A stretch of DNA of 64,000 nucleotides from contig NC_017030.1 of NCBI RefSeq assembly GCF_000255295.1, forward strand, positions 5,456,001 to 5,520,000, written 5' to 3'. This stretch comes from Corallococcus coralloides DSM 2259. Its GTDB lineage: Bacteria > Myxococcota > Myxococcia > Myxococcales > Myxococcaceae. Position numbers and translations under genes: made by a program. A model generated the notes under the pieces. That model was not told the origin of the DNA, made no database searches, and saw only the letters and a program-made list of their open reading frames with translations. Positions 56,462 to 64,000 of the stretch are shown piece after piece; position 1 is the first letter of the stretch, and each line of letters starts with the position of its first letter.

Positions 56462-58495
56462 TCACGTGCACATCAGCCACGAGCACTTGCCGGACTGGCA
56501 CTCGCGGCCGGAGGAACACAGCGAGCCCTTGGCGCGCTTGTTCACACACTTGCCGTCGTTGGTGCCCCAGCCGCAGAACTGGTTCGAGGCACAGTGCGAG
56601 TCCGCGGAGCAGGTGCAGACGCCCGGCACGTCGCCGCAGTCGTCCCACGCGCTGCACAGGTTGGACTTGCACTCCTGGTCGAAGCGGCACGTCTCCGACA
56701 CCAGCTTGGTGCTGGGGGCGTAGGCCTTGCCGCAGATCTTCGGATACGACGCCTCACGGGTGGCCTTGGCGACGTAGGGGTCGACGCCGCCGGTGTCGAT
56801 GTCGTTGGCCGCGTCCGCCATGCCGGTGCGGGTGCCGCTGGCGCGCTCCCACATCCGGATGAAGTTCTCCGAGGAGCCCTCCAGGCCCGTGGTGTTGACG
56901 CCCAGCTGCTTCAGGTCCCTCACCACGTCCGGCAGCAGGCCCACGTGGGCCAGGCCGTACACGTCGAAGTCGGTGCCCAGCGGCGGCGGGCCGGAGACGC
57001 GCTGCTGCTCTTCCTGAGCGTCGGCCTCCGCGCGGAAGCCCGCGGAGCACGCGCCGAAGTCACCGAAGCGCGGACGCGTCTGCTGGATGAAGCCGTTCAG
57101 GTCCGCGCCGAAGCCCATGTTGACCTTGAGGCCCTGGCGGCCGAACTCGTACGCCTGCGCGAGCGAGCGCGTGGAGCCCTGGCAGTTGTTGGCCACCGGC
57201 GTGCGGTTGTAGTTGCGCGTCTCGTCGTGCGCGGTGCGCAGGCCGAACATGCCGCCCGTCTGGCGCACGTAGCGGATGACCCACGACGGCGTCGTCTTCT
57301 CGTTGGCGGCCAGGTCCGGGTTCATCACCTCGCGGAAGTGGCCGTGGGAGATGTAGAGCGGGTAGTACGTCCGCGCCTGGGACAGGGCATAGGCGTCCTG
57401 GACGCTCTTCTCGGACATGTGGGCCATGTCGATGAGCATCCCCTTGTTCATCATCTCCTGGACCAGCGCCTTGCCGTCCGCGGTGAGGCCCTTGGTGTTC
57501 TTGCAGTTGGCGTCCACGTCGAAGCCCAATGTGAAGCCGTTGCCGGTGAGACCGCAGTCCGTGTCGATGTGACAGTTCTCCAGGAACTGGGCCACCTGGA
57601 AGATGGCGTTGTGCGGGGCCGCGCCGCCAAAGCGGTTGTCCAGCTGGTGCACCGGCTGCAGCGAGCGCACACCCAGCGAATGGACGCGGTTGAGCTCCGC
57701 GCGCCAGTCCTTGGTGCCGAAGAGCTTGCTGGACTCGATGGAGAGCACCATGGCGAGCTTGCCCTGCGAGATGATCTGCCGGGCGTGCGCGGGCGACAGG
57801 GCGATCTCCGCCCAGTCCGTGCGCGCGTCGAAGTCGCGGGCCATCTGGAGCTGGACGTCCACGTCCATCATCTCGTCACAGGGCCGCTTGAGGTTCTGGT
57901 ACGGCAGCGCCTTGCAGAGGAACTCGTTGCTGACGAGCGACACCATGACCAGGGACATGCCGCCCTGGCGGGCCTTGTTCAGCCAGCCCTCCCACGCCTG
58001 CTGGTGCGCGATGGTGTCCCAGCGCGGCCACTGGGTGGGCGTCTCCATGCGGCCCAGGTGCAGGCCGGTGTCACCCTCGGTGCCCTCCACCTGGCCGATG
58101 ACCTCCGACGCCACCGCGCCGCCCACGCCGAACACGTCGGACAGGATGGGAATGCCGCCCAGGTTCACGCTGCCGGAGTTGGGACAGAGGTTGAGCATGT
58201 CGCGCAGGTCCATGCGGACGCGCGCGTGGTCGCTCTCCGGCATGCCGCCGTCACAGCTCGCCAGGGTGCCGGTGTGGCCGCCGTGGAACCACCCGCCGCC
58301 GAAGGCTTCTTCCGCGAACATGTGATGGTGCATCTCCGCGAAGCCGCTCACCGCGAGCGGCTGGGCCACCTCCGCGGGCGCTTCCACGGGCGCGGGCGGC
58401 TCGTCGGAGACAGGCCCGCAGGCCAGCGCGAGCGACGTGGCCGCGAGCAGCGGTGAAGACAGAAATCTTGAGACAATTCGGGAGCGACGCGACAT
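56462..58495 (-). CDS. Secreted M19 dipeptidase-like (membrane dipeptidase) protein with Cys-rich tail
   Basis: The protein has 677 residues from ATG 58495 (AAAGG nine bases upstream); a GTG at 58504 is the alternative. The N-terminal lipoprotein-type signal ends near SLALACGPVSDE. The core follows the M19 renal-dipeptidase pattern: GFAEMHHHMF as first metal site, AMVLSIESSKLF with the bridging Glu, LGVRSLQPVHQLDNRFGG, LIDMAHMSEKSVQDAYAL, YPLYISHGHFREVMNPDLAA, YVRQTGGMFGL and VNMGFGADLNGF. It is about twice the usual size, with inserts. The last ~75 residues have ~14 Cys in Dickkopf/EGF-like spacing (CRFDQECKSNLCSAWDDCGD, CQSGKCSWLMCT), a common myxobacterial secreted tail. Substrate unknown. 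Confidence 0.85.
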   Translation of the reverse strand: MSRRSRIVSRFLSSPLLAATSLALACGPVSDEPPAPVEAPAEVAQPLAVSGFAEMHHHMFAEEAFGGGWFHGGHTGTLASCDGGMPESDHARVRMDLRDMLNLCPNSGSVNLGGIPILSDVFGVGGAVASEVIGQVEGTEGDTGLHLGRMETPTQWPRWDTIAHQQAWEGWLNKARQGGMSLVMVSLVSNEFLCKALPYQNLKRPCDEMMDVDVQLQMARDFDARTDWAEIALSPAHARQIISQGKLAMVLSIESSKLFGTKDWRAELNRVHSLGVRSLQPVHQLDNRFGGAAPHNAIFQVAQFLENCHIDTDCGLTGNGFTLGFDVDANCKNTKGLTADGKALVQEMMNKGMLIDMAHMSEKSVQDAYALSQARTYYPLYISHGHFREVMNPDLAANEKTTPSWVIRYVRQTGGMFGLRTAHDETRNYNRTPVANNCQGSTRSLAQAYEFGRQGLKVNMGFGADLNGFIQQTRPRFGDFGACSAGFRAEADAQEEQQRVSGPPPLGTDFDVYGLAHVGLLPDVVRDLKQLGVNTTGLEGSSENFIRMWERASGTRTGMADAANDIDTGGVDPYVAKATREASYPKICGKAYAPSTKLVSETCRFDQECKSNLCSAWDDCGDVPGVCTCSADSHCASNQFCGWGTNDGKCVNKRAKGSLCSSGRECQSGKCSWLMCT

Positions 58496-58648
58496 GCGGT
58501 GCACCTTTCCGGGTGGAGGGGCACCGGGCGTATCAGCACCTGTTCCAGCTAATCAAATCTCACGGCCTAAGCGCGGTGACGCATGACATTGACGCGCTGC
58601 GCGGCATGGCGGGTTGTCACCTGCTCGCGCCGTGGTCATGTGTGCTTC

Positions 58649-59794
58649 ATGGCGGCCACCGACACGCTTCCAGACCTTCCCATGCCGGAGCTGCTGAAGC
58701 GCGTGGGCTTCCGGCGGCGGCGGCGGGGGTTTGGCTCGGCCACCCAGCTGCTCTGGAACAGGGTGGAGAGCAACGCCTCGCTCCTCGCGCTGTGCCGGCA
58801 CCGCAAGAACCTCACCGACGAGGACGAGACCATCCTGGCGCAATGCCAGGAGAAGCTGGATGCCGCCCGGTGGTGCCTGGACAAGCCCCTGGGGCGCTGG
58901 TCCTTCTCCTACTGGGAGCTCATCCATGAGGTGGACGGGCTGCTCCTGCTGGTGATGCCCGCGTCCACGCTGGTGCCCCGGGCGCTGGAGATCCAACAGC
59001 AGTTCGAGCGCCGGGTGTCGGACTCGCGAGCCCATCTCTGGCTGGGTGCGGACAGGGTGAGCGGTCCTTTGCCCCGGTGCGTGCGCGGGATCACCCGCAT
59101 GGACGCGCCAGGGAGCGGAGCCGCCGATCCCCCGCCCCTCGGTACCGAACAGGATCGCTACTGCCGCAGCGTGCTTCGCGGGGCGCTCGATACAGTCAAC
59201 CAGCAGGTGGACAAGACGTTCTGGCAGCTCTCCATCAATGTCACACTGCAGATCTTCAGCACGCTGCTGCTCCTGGCGGTCTTCGCCATCTCCTTCCTGC
59301 TGCTCTCGCGGGAGCTGATCCAGACCTGGCCGAGTGAATTGATTCCCCGGGGCCTGCTGCTGGTGGGCTTCGCGGGGGCGTCCGGGGCCATCATCTCCAA
59401 CATGCTGTCCAAGGAGCGCTTCGTCGTCGCCACGGGAGCGACGAGCCGCTTCTTCGCCTACCACCTGATGGTGAAGCCCGTCATCGGCGCGTTCGCGGCG
59501 CTGATGCTCCTGTTCCTGGAGCAGTCCCGCATGCTGCTGTCCGTGGACACGCGCACGGGGAGCACCGGAGTGGATCCCAGCCCCGCCCTCTTCCACATCG
59601 TCGTGAGCGACGAACAGGCCGTGTTCTTCACGCTGATGGCGCTGGCGGTCGTCGCGGGCTGGTCCGCGGACAAGCTCCTGGGCTCCATCATGGACAAGGT
59701 GCTGGGCCGGCTCCTCGGCCAGTCGGAGAAGGTGCTGCCTCCGTCCAGCCCCGTTGGGACGCCGCCTCGCCCGCAGGCGCCGACGACGCGGTGA
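58649..59794 (+). CDS. Multi-pass membrane protein, convergent to the deaminase-like operon
   Basis: The protein has 381 residues from ATG 58649 (MAATDTLPDLPMPELLKRVG); the longer frame from 58583 has no support. A soluble N-terminal ~200 residues (ELLKRVGFRRRRRGFGSATQ, LTDEDETILAQCQEKLDAAR, AEIQQQFERRVSDSRAHLWL-like helices) precedes four hydrophobic helices. These are TLQIFSTLLLLAVFAISFLL, GLLLVGFAGASGAIISNML, PVIGAFAALMLLFLEQSRML and AVFFTLMALAVVAGWSADKL. No family is recognised. Its stop is only three bases from the stop of the minus-strand adenosine-deaminase-like gene. RADAR defence loci often carry a small membrane accessory, but this one is on the opposite strand, so the link is conjecture. 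Confidence 0.75.
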   Translation: MAATDTLPDLPMPELLKRVGFRRRRRGFGSATQLLWNRVESNASLLALCRHRKNLTDEDETILAQCQEKLDAARWCLDKPLGRWSFSYWELIHEVDGLLLLVMPASTLVPRALEIQQQFERRVSDSRAHLWLGADRVSGPLPRCVRGITRMDAPGSGAADPPPLGTEQDRYCRSVLRGALDTVNQQVDKTFWQLSINVTLQIFSTLLLLAVFAISFLLLSRELIQTWPSELIPRGLLLVGFAGASGAIISNMLSKERFVVATGATSRFFAYHLMVKPVIGAFAALMLLFLEQSRMLLSVDTRTGSTGVDPSPALFHIVVSDEQAVFFTLMALAVVAGWSADKLLGSIMDKVLGRLLGQSEKVLPPSSPVGTPPRPQAPTTR

Positions 59795-59797
59795 CGC

Positions 59798-62584
59798 TCA
59801 AGCGGACGAGGGGCCATCGTGGCGGGGCACGAGCCTTCGGGCGAAGCGGGCCAGCGCGTCCAGCAGCTCGTCCGCCATGTGCAGGGCGCTGGGGCGCCAG
59901 GGGGCGGTGAAGCGCGCGTCCATGCTCGTCTGGCGGATGGTGGACAGCCACTCGTGCACCACCCGTTCGGAATAGCCCGCGCTGCGCGCCGCCTCGTGCA
60001 GCAGGGAGTATTCGCGCAGGAGGAAGGTGGAGAACGTGACGGGGTCGTCCGCGCCCACCGCGATGGGCACCGGCGGCGGTACGCCGTCCTCCGCGAGCGG
60101 TGGATTGAGCCGCAGGATGGGATGGTTGCGCAGGTCCAGCAGGTTGCCGATGAGCAGGTTGCTGGACGGGTTCACCTCCACGACGGTTCCCCGCGCGCCC
60201 ACGTGCCGGCGCATCGCGTCCTGCACCGACCGGAGCGCGTCCACCTCCGACGCGTCCAGTGGGATGTCCACCAGCTGCTGTCCCCGCCGGAACACGCCCT
60301 CGTCCTCCCGGTAGGCAATGAGCACGTTCCTGACCTGCTCCGCGTTGAGCACCCGGGTCCAGTTCAGCCGGCGGAAGGTGCGGCTGAAGGCATCCAACCC
60401 CACGCCGCCCTCCTCGCGCGCCAGCGGCGGGCACCAGAGGTTGTGCAGCACGTGGTGCGCTTCGGCCAGCACGTGCGGCGCGATGCAGTCCCCGAAGACG
60501 GACTCGGACAGCTCGCGCAGCATGTTCTCCACCCGCTGCGGCCGTCCGGGAGGCGCCTCCGCGGCCAGCGCCGGTGGCAGCCGGTAGTCGCTGTAGAGGC
60601 GCCACTCGAAGACCAGGTCCCACAGCCGGTCCTCGGCCGGCATCATCACCGCGCCCACGGACTCCGCCCACATCCTGGGCTCCACGCCCAGCGCCGTGGC
60701 GTGGCCCAGCCGGCCTCCCGTGCGGTCCAACAGGTAGTGCAGGCTTTCGTAGATGCGGCGCAGGCCTTCCATGAGGTGCCGATAGTCCTCCCCCACGTGC
60801 GACGTCAGCCGGAGCGGTGGAGCCCCCCGGGCCTCCCGCTTCGTCGCGGCACGCGCTGCGCCCCACCGCACGTAGCGGTACAGCGGCGCCAGCACCCACG
60901 TGGGCACGCTCAGCTCGTCCGACGCCACGTCCAGGCCCCGCACCAGCCAGAGCGACAGCGGCACCGCCTTCATCAGGTCCACCAGCGCCTCCACCTGCAC
61001 CGACTGCGCGGCGAAGTAGTCGGAGAACCGTCCACCCAGCCGCACCCGCCCCTCCGGCACCGGCTCCGCGTACGTGCCCATCCCGTGCGCGGGCGGCTGG
61101 CCTTGCGTCCAGTGCCGGCTCGGATCGCGAGCCTTGATGAGGTGCATCACCACGCCGAACTCCGGCGGGCGCCCACCGACGGCGCGCTCTCCCGTTCGGC
61201 CCAGCACGCCCCGCCATGATTGCGTGAGGGAGGCCAGCTCCTCGGCGATGCGGATGGGATCGTTCGCGAGGCTCGTGCGGACCTCCAGCGCGGCGATGGG
61301 TTGTTCCCCTCCGGCCACCGCGTAGGACACCTCCGCGCGCACGGCGCGCAGCGGGCGCTTCATCACGCCCGGACGGCCATAGAAGCGGATGAACCACTGG
61401 AGGCCCGCGGTCAGCGGCCGCTGCACGTAGGCGCGGTAGCTGATGCACCGCACGCGCTGGACCTGCCAGAAGAGGCGGTCGAAGTGCACGTCGTGCATGC
61501 CCGCGTGCTCCAGGCTCGCCAGGTGCTTCAGGCCCGCGCGCACCAGCCAGCGCTCCCCTCCGTTGGGGCTGCTCAGGCGCAACCGCAAGGCGATGGGATC
61601 GCACCGCCGCCACACCTCGTCGAGCGTGGCGGGCGGGTCGACCACGTTTCGGGCCGCCAGCGGATGGAGGTCCTCGTAGAGGCCGCGCAGCTCATCCAGC
61701 GAAGGGAGGAGCTCCCGACGGCCGCGCGAGAGTGCCTCCAGCGCCCGCGCGAGCACGCGCCGCCGCTGCGGCAGCCAGGCCTGCGACTCAGAGAGGCCGC
61801 GCACGAACTCCAGGAGCGGAGGCGTTTCACTGCGCAGCAGGACCTCCGCGAGGACGCAGCGGGTCACCGCGGCCACGATCAACCAGCGCAGCATCACCTC
61901 CGCGTCATCGAAGGGCAGCCCTGGCCCCGCCAGCAGGCGCGGATCCAGCAACGGGTCTCCCACGGCGGAAAGCAGCGAGGCCCACAGCAGTGGGAAGTCC
62001 ATGCCCGCGCCGACGTGGTGGTGGACCTCCGCCACGCCGCGATCCAGCAGGTGGCGCACCAGCAGCGGCGGTTCGATGTCCACACGCGTGGGAGGCGGCT
62101 CCACCGGAACGGCCGCCAGCAGCAGGTCCTCCGGCATCGCGAAGGTGAGCCAGCGGTAATGCGTCAGGGCCTCCACCGCCTCCGCGCCCGTGCCCTGGAA
62201 GATGACGGTGACGCCAGGGCGGCGCTCCAGGTGGGTGTCCGCCAGGTGCCGCAGGTAGTGGAGCATCGACACGGCCTGGCGGGGGGCCTTCCGGTGACTC
62301 GCGTGCCCCCGCGAGGGAAACCAGAATGAGTCGCGCACGGCGATGATCCGGTCCAAAGACCAGCCGCTGGCGTGCTCCGACAGGCTCTTCTCGCACTCGC
62401 GCCAGAGTTCCCGCGTGGGCCCGCCGGCTCCCGCGTCCAGCGACGGCACCAACTCCGTCACCGCCGAACGGAAGGCCCCAAGGCTCGTCAGCGGGAAGCA
62501 GGCCACCTCCGCGCGGACGTAGGCCTCCGGGACGCGGCGCGGGGCCAGGCTGCCCGGGAGTGGGCGCGGGCCCTCGCGGCTCAC
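59798..62584 (-). CDS. Large adenosine deaminase-superfamily protein, RdrB-like candidate
   Basis: The protein has 928 residues from GTG 62584, which overlaps the stop of the upstream gene (GTGA). All adenosine deaminase motifs occur in order. The metal-binding HxH is in AEVHHHVGAGMDFPLLWASL (about 185); the HAGE-like SHVGEDYRHLMEGLRR is near 595; the RIGHG-like GGRLGHATALG is near 626. EVNPSSNLLIGNLLDL (about 800) corresponds to CPxSNxxTG, and GADDPVTFSTFLLREY (about 846) to TDDPxxF. The first and second motifs are ~410 residues apart instead of ~200, and the protein is almost three times a housekeeping deaminase. Such a divergent, enlarged deaminase downstream of another large gene is how RdrB of RADAR anti-phage systems looks. 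Assignment to RADAR is inference. Confidence 0.75.
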   Translation of the reverse strand: MSREGPRPLPGSLAPRRVPEAYVRAEVACFPLTSLGAFRSAVTELVPSLDAGAGGPTRELWRECEKSLSEHASGWSLDRIIAVRDSFWFPSRGHASHRKAPRQAVSMLHYLRHLADTHLERRPGVTVIFQGTGAEAVEALTHYRWLTFAMPEDLLLAAVPVEPPPTRVDIEPPLLVRHLLDRGVAEVHHHVGAGMDFPLLWASLLSAVGDPLLDPRLLAGPGLPFDDAEVMLRWLIVAAVTRCVLAEVLLRSETPPLLEFVRGLSESQAWLPQRRRVLARALEALSRGRRELLPSLDELRGLYEDLHPLAARNVVDPPATLDEVWRRCDPIALRLRLSSPNGGERWLVRAGLKHLASLEHAGMHDVHFDRLFWQVQRVRCISYRAYVQRPLTAGLQWFIRFYGRPGVMKRPLRAVRAEVSYAVAGGEQPIAALEVRTSLANDPIRIAEELASLTQSWRGVLGRTGERAVGGRPPEFGVVMHLIKARDPSRHWTQGQPPAHGMGTYAEPVPEGRVRLGGRFSDYFAAQSVQVEALVDLMKAVPLSLWLVRGLDVASDELSVPTWVLAPLYRYVRWGAARAATKREARGAPPLRLTSHVGEDYRHLMEGLRRIYESLHYLLDRTGGRLGHATALGVEPRMWAESVGAVMMPAEDRLWDLVFEWRLYSDYRLPPALAAEAPPGRPQRVENMLRELSESVFGDCIAPHVLAEAHHVLHNLWCPPLAREEGGVGLDAFSRTFRRLNWTRVLNAEQVRNVLIAYREDEGVFRRGQQLVDIPLDASEVDALRSVQDAMRRHVGARGTVVEVNPSSNLLIGNLLDLRNHPILRLNPPLAEDGVPPPVPIAVGADDPVTFSTFLLREYSLLHEAARSAGYSERVVHEWLSTIRQTSMDARFTAPWRPSALHMADELLDALARFARRLVPRHDGPSSA

Positions 62585-64000
62585 GGGTGATCGTCCGTGG
62601 CCCTGGGGGCCAGGTAGGGCGACATGCCCAGCACCACCTCCGCCAGCGGGTCCCCGTGGTGGTCCACGACCGTGAACCAGGCGTCCACCATGGTGTCGAG
62701 CCAGCTGTAGTAGGTCTCCGACGCGCGCCCGCGTCCCGTGCCAAGCATCCGGCGGAGTGACTCGGCCGCGCTGGAGCGATTCACCGCGTCGCGCACCCGT
62801 TGCTGCCGGAAGGCCGACAGCCGGGGCGCCTGGTTGCCCCAGTCCTTCACCAGGCTTACCCAGCCACCGTCCGCGCTGGGGGCTCCAGGCGGCTGGCGCA
62901 GCAGGCTCCGCCCGTCGGCGGTGAGCGCGTGCTCCGGCAGCACCTGGAGCGGCAGCTCGTCGCGAAGCCAGACCTGCGCCGTCCAAAGGCGATCGTATCC
63001 GGCGCTGTGCTTGTGGATCTGGCTGACGAGCCCCGCCACCGTATCGCGCACCCGCTGTTCATAGCGCTCCAGCGCCGTGGCCAGCTGCGGAGCCCGCAGC
63101 ACGGACACGACGCCGTGGCGTTCATTTCCCCAGTCCCATCTGCCCAGCTCCAGTCCGGCCACGGAGCAGACGTTCTCCACCCACGCGGCCTGGATGAAGC
63201 GGGCGCGCAGGGCAGTGTCCTGCCCGTCCCCCGCGGAGAGGAATCCCCGGGACAGCCGTGCGAGGAATGCGCGCCATTGGGCGGTGAGGATGGCGAACTC
63301 GATGAAGGTGGTCCACGCGGGGGGCGTCCACCAGAACGCAGCCTGGACGAACGGCTCTCCGAGCGCGCGGCCCGCCCAGAGCTCGTGCACGGTGCCCATC
63401 ATCTTCGGGCTCAGCTCGAGGGCCATCAACTCCGCGCTCAGCACACGGGGCCGCTCGAAGAGCATCAGCACGTCATGCAGGATCATGAACCAGCCGGCGA
63501 CGTTCGCGGGCAGCGTGGTTTCGCGACCGGGGTCCTCTGGATCCGCCAGCACCAGCAGCACTTCGTGGAAGCGGCGCAGGTGCACCTCCGTGCTCAGCAC
63601 CCGGGCGTGCGCGCCCGTCCCGTTTCCGCTGGGATCGCTCGGCGGCCCCTGCAGGACGCCGTGGAGGCTGGTGCGCGTGGAGCGGCGGATGGGCTTGCCC
63701 GTCAGGTCCAGACAGACGCGGCCCTGGTCGTCCTGCCGGAGGATGCGGTGGTGGAGCAGCTCGCTGGCCCAGGCCGGCAAGTCGCTCTCGTCGATGGCGT
63801 TGCGGAGCATCTCCGCGGCCACCCGGACCGAGGACTCGCCCTGCTCCTGCGCGCCATTCAAGCCGGTCCCCGCGGCGGACGTTCCGGAGATCAGGACCTC
63901 GCGCCGGACGGAGTGCCAGAGGTCCTGGAGGGTCCGCGCGGGGAGCGTGAGCGCGAGCCTTCCCACGTGGTGGAGGAGCGGCTCGTCCGGGCGCGTTCCG
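62581..64000 (-). CDS. C-terminal part of a large protein upstream of the deaminase-like gene (5' end outside window)
   Basis: The open frame runs from the window edge to a stop at 62581; at least 472 residues are visible. The GTG at 63966 is not the real start, because the frame stays open to the edge (TRPDEPLLHHVGRLALTLPA). The visible part is helical and Trp-rich, with no signal, membrane segment or Walker motif: LQDLWHSVRREVLISG, VAGWFMILHDVLMLFERPRV, AFWWTPPAWTTFIEFAILTA, RLWTAQVWLRDELPLQVLPE, SYSWLDTMVDAWFTVVDHHG-like end. The stop overlaps the deaminase-like start by four bases, so the two work together. If this is RADAR, this gene should be RdrA, whose ATPase part would lie beyond the window. 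The family could not be recognised from the visible part. Confidence 0.7.
   Translation of the reverse strand, partial: GTRPDEPLLHHVGRLALTLPARTLQDLWHSVRREVLISGTSAAGTGLNGAQEQGESSVRVAAEMLRNAIDESDLPAWASELLHHRILRQDDQGRVCLDLTGKPIRRSTRTSLHGVLQGPPSDPSGNGTGAHARVLSTEVHLRRFHEVLLVLADPEDPGRETTLPANVAGWFMILHDVLMLFERPRVLSAELMALELSPKMMGTVHELWAGRALGEPFVQAAFWWTPPAWTTFIEFAILTAQWRAFLARLSRGFLSAGDGQDTALRARFIQAAWVENVCSVAGLELGRWDWGNERHGVVSVLRAPQLATALERYEQRVRDTVAGLVSQIHKHSAGYDRLWTAQVWLRDELPLQVLPEHALTADGRSLLRQPPGAPSADGGWVSLVKDWGNQAPRLSAFRQQRVRDAVNRSSAAESLRRMLGTGRGRASETYYSWLDTMVDAWFTVVDHHGDPLAEVVLGMSPYLAPRATDDHP

What the first reader, a model, noticed from the sequence alone, without database searches (positions are those of the whole stretch)
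59798..64000. RADAR-like two-gene system with a giant, insertion-rich adenosine deaminase
Seen: a 928-residue protein with all five adenosine deaminase motif blocks (HxH, HxGE, RxGH, NPSSN, ADDP) but about 410 residues between the first two. It is translationally coupled by a GTGA overlap to another large gene that runs out of the window. Known: RADAR anti-phage systems pair an ATPase (RdrA) with a large divergent adenosine deaminase (RdrB) in this order. Inference: this is RADAR or a related, possibly undescribed, deaminase-effector system in a myxobacterium.
Basis: partly seen in the sequence, partly recalled or inferred. Interest (0 to 1): 0.8.

Follow-up and report, generated by a model that had tools for sequence, protein, structure and literature searches.

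The report
Divergent myxobacterial RADAR anti-phage cassette
This is a distant, mobile version of the known RADAR anti-phage system in a Corallococcus bacterium: an ATP-binding sensor protein plus a large ATP-deaminating enzyme, with an unusual change at the sensor's ATP-burning site and a possible new membrane partner.

Summary
The 928-aa gene (59798-62584, minus) has every adenosine-deaminase catalytic residue and matches RADAR RdrB (NCBIfam 8e-47, PADLOC 6e-38, PDB 8FNW 4e-26). The 408 residues between HxH and HxGE are ordinary RdrB 'insertion 2' (344 in E. coli). Past the window edge the coupled gene (885 aa) is RdrA: intact Walker A, weak family hits, but every Foldseek PDB hit below E=1e-3 is an RdrA chain. 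It belongs to a clade ('clade I') in 14 of 16 Corallococcus genomes and six other genera sampled. Three features make it a variant. (1) All 21 full-length clade I RdrA proteins have Asn at the second Walker B acid and His/Gln/Arg at sensor 1; 0 of 19 other RdrA proteins have the Asn, so ATP hydrolysis may be slowed or lost. (2) In Corallococcus a convergent membrane-protein gene travels with rdrAB as a sharp-edged ~6.7-kb cassette at different chromosomal sites. (3) The C-terminal part of RdrA has dN/dS two to three times that of its ATPase part, as expected of a phage sensor. NCBIfam cut-offs miss this clade. No activity has been tested.

The parts
59798..62584 (-). rdrB-like gene, 928 aa, GTG start, large adenosine deaminase
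62015..62023 (-). HHH (HxH, H188/H190), zinc ligands, equivalent to EcRdrB H152/H154
60800..62014 (-). residues 191-595, corresponds to RdrB insertion 2 plus part of the barrel (405 residues)
   Evidence: E. coli spacing 344 residues from PMC9994260
60788..60799 (-). HVGE (H596, E599), equivalent to EcRdrB H498/E501
60701..60712 (-). RLGH (H628), equivalent to EcRdrB H530
60158..60172 (-). NPSSN block
60041..60052 (-). ADDP block (D846, D847 invariant)
62581..64000 (-). 3' part of rdrA-like gene (whole gene 885 aa, to window-equivalent 65238; Walker A, Walker B Asn252 and sensor-1 His283 lie outside the window)
62581..62584 (-). GTGA overlap: rdrB start / rdrA stop, translational coupling
58649..59794 (+). 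convergent membrane protein gene, 381 aa from the conserved MAATDTLP start (403 aa from the first ATG at 58583); proposed third gene of the cassette
   Evidence: start supported by alignment and by the stub left in G013
56462..58504 (-). flanking dipeptidase-like gene, marks the cassette's edge, not part of the system

Best explanation
A divergent RADAR anti-phage system. Shown by sequence: an RdrA-type AAA+ protein and an RdrB-type deaminase, translationally coupled, in the canonical order, with all RdrB catalytic residues, as part of a cassette found at different chromosomal sites. Inferred from E. coli RADAR: RdrB forms a shell, RdrA rings dock on it, RdrA's fast-evolving C-terminal lobe senses infection, and RdrB then deaminates ATP/dATP to ITP/dITP, which limits phage replication. 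Inferred and specific to this clade: because the second Walker B acid is Asn and sensor 1 is His/Gln/Arg, RdrA may bind ATP but hydrolyse it slowly or not at all, so switching would depend on ATP binding or a phage ligand rather than ATP turnover. The convergent membrane protein is probably an accessory, by analogy with the SLATT/Csx27 membrane partners of other RADAR subtypes.
For: RdrB: PADLOC 5.7e-38, NCBIfam RdrB 7.6e-47; phmmer to 8FNW/8HR7 4.4e-26, ordinary adenosine deaminases far behind; H188/H190/H596/E599/H628/D846/D847 invariant in 18 proteins; H628-to-E803 spacing 175 against about 174 in EcRdrB (counted). RdrA: PADLOC/NCBIfam RdrA hits at 1e-4/1e-5 over the Walker B-sensor 1 region; profile comparison to a Salmonella/E. 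coli RdrA E=9.6e-7; all 11 Foldseek hits with E<0.001 are RdrA chains (8HRA, 8HR8, 8FNU). Other RdrB loci examined also have a large P-loop gene directly upstream. Walker B Asn in 21/21 clade I, 0/19 others, Walker A kept; correspondence to EcRdrA D222/D253 via a Rhizobium bridge and an identical 31-residue spacing. Cassette with sharp edges in non-homologous flanks; deletion stub in the cassette-less closed genome G013. dN/dS RdrA C-terminus 0.47-0.78, ATPase part 0.16-0.41, RdrB 0.15-0.37, flanking dipeptidase 0.12-0.19.
Against: RdrA family scores are far below the curated cut-off (24 bits against 600) and the AlphaFold model is poor (pLDDT 49), so RdrA membership rests on a weak ATPase match, on Foldseek with a low-confidence model, and on position. 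The RdrB score (160 bits) is also below the NCBIfam cut-off of 800, although other RdrAB-like pairs on plasmids score much the same (162-181). The E595-E597 trimer-interface triplet of EcRdrB is not visible in the alignment. Near-fixation in Corallococcus is unusual for a defence system. There are no phage or biochemical data.
Confidence: 0.88

Rival explanations
1. A RADAR-derived pair that has been domesticated in Corallococcus for nucleotide metabolism or development rather than phage defence.
For: Clade I is present in 14 of 16 Corallococcus genomes against <1% of genomes overall for RADAR (PMC9994260) and 21 of 5426 E. coli genomes for the one subtype searched.
Against: The cassette sits in different places in different Corallococcus, is deleted in G013 leaving a stub, some genomes carry several diverged copies (G010, G029, G103, G120, G139), and its RdrA C-terminus and membrane protein evolve much faster than the neighbouring gene.
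Confidence: 0.08
2. An adenosine deaminase of another family coupled to an unrelated STAND/AAA regulator that converged on the RADAR layout.
For: RdrA-level sequence similarity is very weak; a STAND-type Pfam match (nSTAND_NTPase5) scores about as well.
Against: RdrB homology is strong and extends over the insertions; Foldseek ranks RdrA chains first; Walker B-sensor 1 spacing is identical to EcRdrA.
Confidence: 0.03
3. About the third gene only: the membrane protein is a passenger or part of another system, so the system is a plain two-gene RADAR.
For: It is on the opposite strand; six clade I loci lack a detectable homologue; homologues in G125/G135/G140 follow an Omp85/POTRA gene some 3 kb from a clade II RADAR; one homologue is found without rdrAB in a fragmented assembly, G018.
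Against: It moves with rdrAB as one unit among non-homologous Corallococcus sites and lies next to rdrAB in three different orientations: convergent in Corallococcus, co-directional in G036 and G090, divergent upstream of the second G010 copy.
Confidence: 0.4

Closest known systems
RADAR (RdrA-RdrB), E. [quoted passage not shown]
   Same: Gene order, AAA+ ATPase then large deaminase; all RdrB catalytic residues; insertions 2 and 3 present, insertion 3 of similar length; RdrA found first by structure search.
   Different: RdrB only 19-25% identical to the four plasmid reference RdrB proteins aligned; RdrA Walker B D-D to D-N and sensor 1 D to H/Q/R; no sequence match in the RdrA C-terminal lobe.
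Csx27- and SLATT-associated RADAR subtypes (Gao et al. 2020 as summarised in PMC7699616)
   Same: RADAR pair with an extra membrane protein; an example on an Aureibacter plasmid has RdrA-like, RdrB-like and SLATT genes in a row.
   Different: The Corallococcus membrane protein does not match that SLATT protein nor any PADLOC model; it has an N-terminal soluble helical half and only weak DUF4257/YLATT similarity.
Clade II myxobacterial RADAR-like loci (about 31-36% RdrB identity)
   Same: Large upstream P-loop gene and RdrB-type deaminase in the same phylum, sometimes in the same genome.
   Different: Canonical D-D Walker B; RdrA-position protein up to 1224 aa; separate branch in the quick tree.

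Membership tests
RADAR | RdrA and RdrB encoded in tandem, RdrA first | tested here: met
   GTGA overlap
RADAR (RdrB) | Zn-binding His tetrad and catalytic Glu of adenosine deaminase (EcRdrB H152, H154, H498, H530, E501) | tested here: met
   H188, H190, H596, H628, E599 aligned and invariant
RADAR (RdrB) | Insertion 2 splitting the catalytic core and insertion 3 after the last catalytic His | tested here: met
   408 residues H188-H596; 175 residues H628-E803 against about 174 in 8FNW
RADAR (RdrB) | Dodecameric shell (e.g. Glu595-597 interface) | tested here: inconclusive
   Glu triplet not conserved in the alignment; assembly itself not testable here
RADAR (RdrB) | (d)ATP to (d)ITP deamination | not testable with these tools
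   needs enzymology
RADAR (RdrA) | AAA+ domain with Walker A | tested here: met
   GARGSGKTT, K78/T79
RADAR (RdrA) | Walker B D-D and sensor 1 Asp (EcRdrA D221, D222, D253) | tested here: not met
   D251 kept; N252 and H283 at the other two positions; Asn in 21/21 of the clade. A fixed lineage change; I file the locus as a variant of RADAR, not as a canonical member. Sensor 1 also varies (H/Q) in clade II
RADAR (RdrA) | RdrA fold, two-layer heptamer | tested here: inconclusive
   poor model (pLDDT 49) but all 11 Foldseek hits with E<0.001 are RdrA chains
RADAR (NCBIfam equivalog) | score above curated cut-off (RdrB 800, RdrA 600 bits) | tested here: not met
   160 and 24 bits; Rhizobium, Cetobacterium and Aureibacter RdrB-like proteins also fail (162-181 bits), so the models are narrow
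SLATT-associated RADAR | SLATT-domain membrane protein beside rdrAB | tested here: not met
   third gene shows no SLATT match
RADAR | protection against phage | not testable with these tools
   needs plaque assays

The most novel reading that the evidence does not exclude
A RADAR subtype in which RdrA has given up ATP hydrolysis (fixed Walker B Asn, sensor 1 His/Gln/Arg) and works as an ATP-loaded docking or sensing ring, in Corallococcus together with a new membrane partner outside the SLATT and Csx27 families.
Probability: 0.3. Interest if true: 0.65.

Novelty: new variant of a known kind. Interest (0 to 1): 0.48.

Why it matters
How RdrA switches RdrB on is unresolved: in E. coli an RdrA Walker A mutant (K82A) makes no ITP (PMC9994260), which does not separate ATP binding from ATP hydrolysis. 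A whole clade that keeps Walker A but has replaced the second Walker B acid is a natural experiment on exactly that question. RdrB homologues occur in 30 of 195 sampled Myxococcota genomes, while RADAR was called in under 1% of genomes; narrow model cut-offs may therefore hide part of RADAR diversity. The fast-evolving membrane protein may be a new RADAR accessory.

Tried and rejected
Structure prediction of RdrA (C. interemptor orthologue, 9 sequences) gave pLDDT 49 and of the membrane protein pLDDT 58; the latter has no PDB match below E=0.001, so no fold is claimed for it. PDB sequence search with the RdrA profile found no RdrA. Calling the site a defence island was rejected: the matching interval in G013 holds an NRPS/PKS-like biosynthetic cluster (judged from the large ORFs), so it is a variable site in general. 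No RdrB homologue in 50,697 phage records; only 7 of 72,556 plasmid records have one. The careful phylogeny did not finish; the tree used is the quick one, with long reference branches.

Full report
OBSERVATION. The ORF at 59798-62584 on the minus strand encodes 928 residues from a GTG start. The five deaminase blocks are present: HHH at 188-190, HVGE at 596-599, RLGH at 625-628, NPSSN at 805-809, ADDP at 845-848. The start overlaps the upstream stop by GTGA. The window is G000:C1:5456001-5520000 of a 10.08-Mb single-contig genome; fetching the sequence beyond the edge gives the whole upstream gene, 885 aa, window-equivalent 62581-65238. The closest named relatives, at 76-92% identity, are Corallococcus species, so the myxobacterium guess is right.

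THE DEAMINASE IS RdrB-TYPE. It matches the PADLOC RdrB model at 5.7e-38, NCBIfam RdrB at 7.6e-47 and E. coli RdrB in the PDB (8FNW/8HR7) at 4.4e-26, whereas the best AMP/adenosine deaminase of another kind reaches only 0.003. In an 18-sequence alignment, which includes RdrB-like proteins from Aliivibrio, Salmonella, Rhizobium and Cetobacterium plasmids, the His tetrad, catalytic Glu and the DD pair are invariant. The His tetrad and Glu correspond to E. coli H152, H154, H498, H530 and E501 (PMC9994260). Insertion 3, after the last His, has almost the same length as in E. coli (175 against about 174; counted).

THE PARTNER IS RdrA-TYPE, BUT CHANGED AT ITS ACTIVE SITE. Direct family hits are weak (PADLOC 1.4e-4, NCBIfam 1.3e-5, both over residues 245-343). 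Profile comparison with the RdrA shared by a Salmonella plasmid and E. coli gives E=9.6e-7 over the same region. A predicted structure of the C. interemptor orthologue has low confidence (pLDDT 49), yet all 11 Foldseek matches below E=0.001 are RdrA chains. Walker A (GARGSGKTT) is intact. Walker B reads PIDNVD where other RdrA proteins read DD; sensor 1 reads AAGH where E. coli has TGD253. The correspondence was checked through Rhizobium RdrA, which aligns to E. coli RdrA by phmmer and to this family by profile; the spacing between the two positions is 31 residues in both. In a 40-protein comparison all 21 full-length clade I RdrA proteins carry the Asn and none of 19 others does. Sensor 1 is less telling, because it also varies (H, Q, D) in the second myxobacterial clade. 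In AAA+ proteins an amide at this acid position commonly allows ATP binding while blocking hydrolysis (general knowledge); whether that holds here is untested.

A CASSETTE OF THREE GENES. Downstream of rdrB, tail to tail with 3 bases between the genes, lies a membrane protein gene. Alignment shows the conserved start at MAATDTLP, so it probably begins at 58649 (381 aa) rather than 58583. Among Corallococcus relatives whose flanks are not homologous, homology begins and ends sharply around rdrA-rdrB-membrane gene, about 6.7 kb. In the window genome the cassette lies between a dipeptidase-like gene and a membrane-fusion/ABC transporter operon. The closed sister genome G013 lacks it; there the two flanks lie 44.7 kb apart with a biosynthetic cluster between them, and the first codons of the membrane gene survive as a stub, which points to loss. 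Homologues of the membrane gene also neighbour clade I rdrAB in other arrangements: co-directional downstream in G036 and G090, divergent upstream at the second G010 copy, where a contig break separates two parts of the locus. Against a dedicated role, six clade I loci have no detectable homologue, and three clade II neighbourhoods have one next to an Omp85 gene. It is not SLATT by direct comparison and has only sub-threshold DUF4257/YLATT similarity. I therefore treat it as a probable, not a proven, accessory.

DISTRIBUTION. Of 16 Corallococcus genomes (the window's own included) 15 have an RdrB homologue and 14 have clade I; in a phylum sample 30 of 195 genomes have a homologue, and clade I occurs in six genera besides Corallococcus. 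RADAR was called in 270 of about 38,000 genomes (PMC9994260), and the E. coli subtype searched here is in 21 of 5,426 complete E. coli genomes. Several genomes carry two or three diverged RADAR-like loci. Clade I is a strongly supported branch in a quick tree, with the G007 protein beside it and clade II as the next branch.

EVOLUTION. Pairwise dN/dS in Corallococcus pairs is 0.47-0.78 for the C-terminal part of RdrA, 0.16-0.41 for its ATPase part, 0.15-0.37 for RdrB, 0.28-0.68 for the membrane protein and 0.12-0.19 for the flanking dipeptidase. This fits the proposal in PMC9994260 that the RdrA C-terminal domain senses phage, and argues against a housekeeping role. None of the values exceeds 1, so positive selection is not shown.

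MECHANISM. By analogy with E. coli RADAR (PMC9994260), RdrB would deaminate ATP and dATP once RdrA detects infection. That step is inferred; the catalytic residues for it are shown. What may differ is the switch: if the Asn stops hydrolysis, ATP loading or ligand binding alone must set RdrA's state.

NOVELTY. RADAR is known; this is a divergent variant. I found no paper in the searched library on RADAR in myxobacteria, but supplementary lists of RADAR genomes could not be read and may include some of these loci.

Noticed in passing
L045, L046 (G029); L123 (G120); L124 (G139); L125, L127, L128 (G125, G135, G140); L044, L047, L126, L129: A second, more distant myxobacterial RADAR-like clade (about 31-36% RdrB identity) with RdrA-position proteins of 792-1224 aa and canonical Walker B; several genomes carry it besides clade I.
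   Followed up: partly
L120:1893-2648 (+), L121:9349-9945 (-): Other clade I loci have different multi-helix membrane proteins upstream of rdrA in the same direction; they match no Pfam or PADLOC family, suggesting that RADAR membrane partners are more varied than SLATT and Csx27.
   Followed up: partly
L128:10751-13496, L127:11381-14055, L125:1432-4189: A homologue of the membrane protein follows an Omp85/POTRA gene about 3 kb from a clade II RADAR; the pairing is unexplained.
   Followed up: no
L096:7747-8178: A VanZ-family membrane protein gene sits directly downstream of an RdrB-like gene on a Cetobacterium plasmid.
   Followed up: no
L043 (G007:C627): The one Corallococcus genome with only a distant RADAR-like locus: RdrB 36% identical, upstream 806-aa ATPase with Walker B VVDDLY; sister to clade I in the quick tree.
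   Followed up: partly
L095:8040-9641: An adenylosuccinate synthetase gene lies downstream of the RADAR pair on a Rhizobium plasmid, another purine-nucleotide enzyme next to an ATP deaminase.
   Followed up: no
window 56462-58504 and L003:8232-12684: The site between the dipeptidase-like gene and the MFP/ABC operon differs in content among Corallococcus genomes: a biosynthetic cluster in G013, and 1.8-8.3 kb of additional sequence beside the RADAR cassette in G001, G006 and G011.
   Followed up: partly
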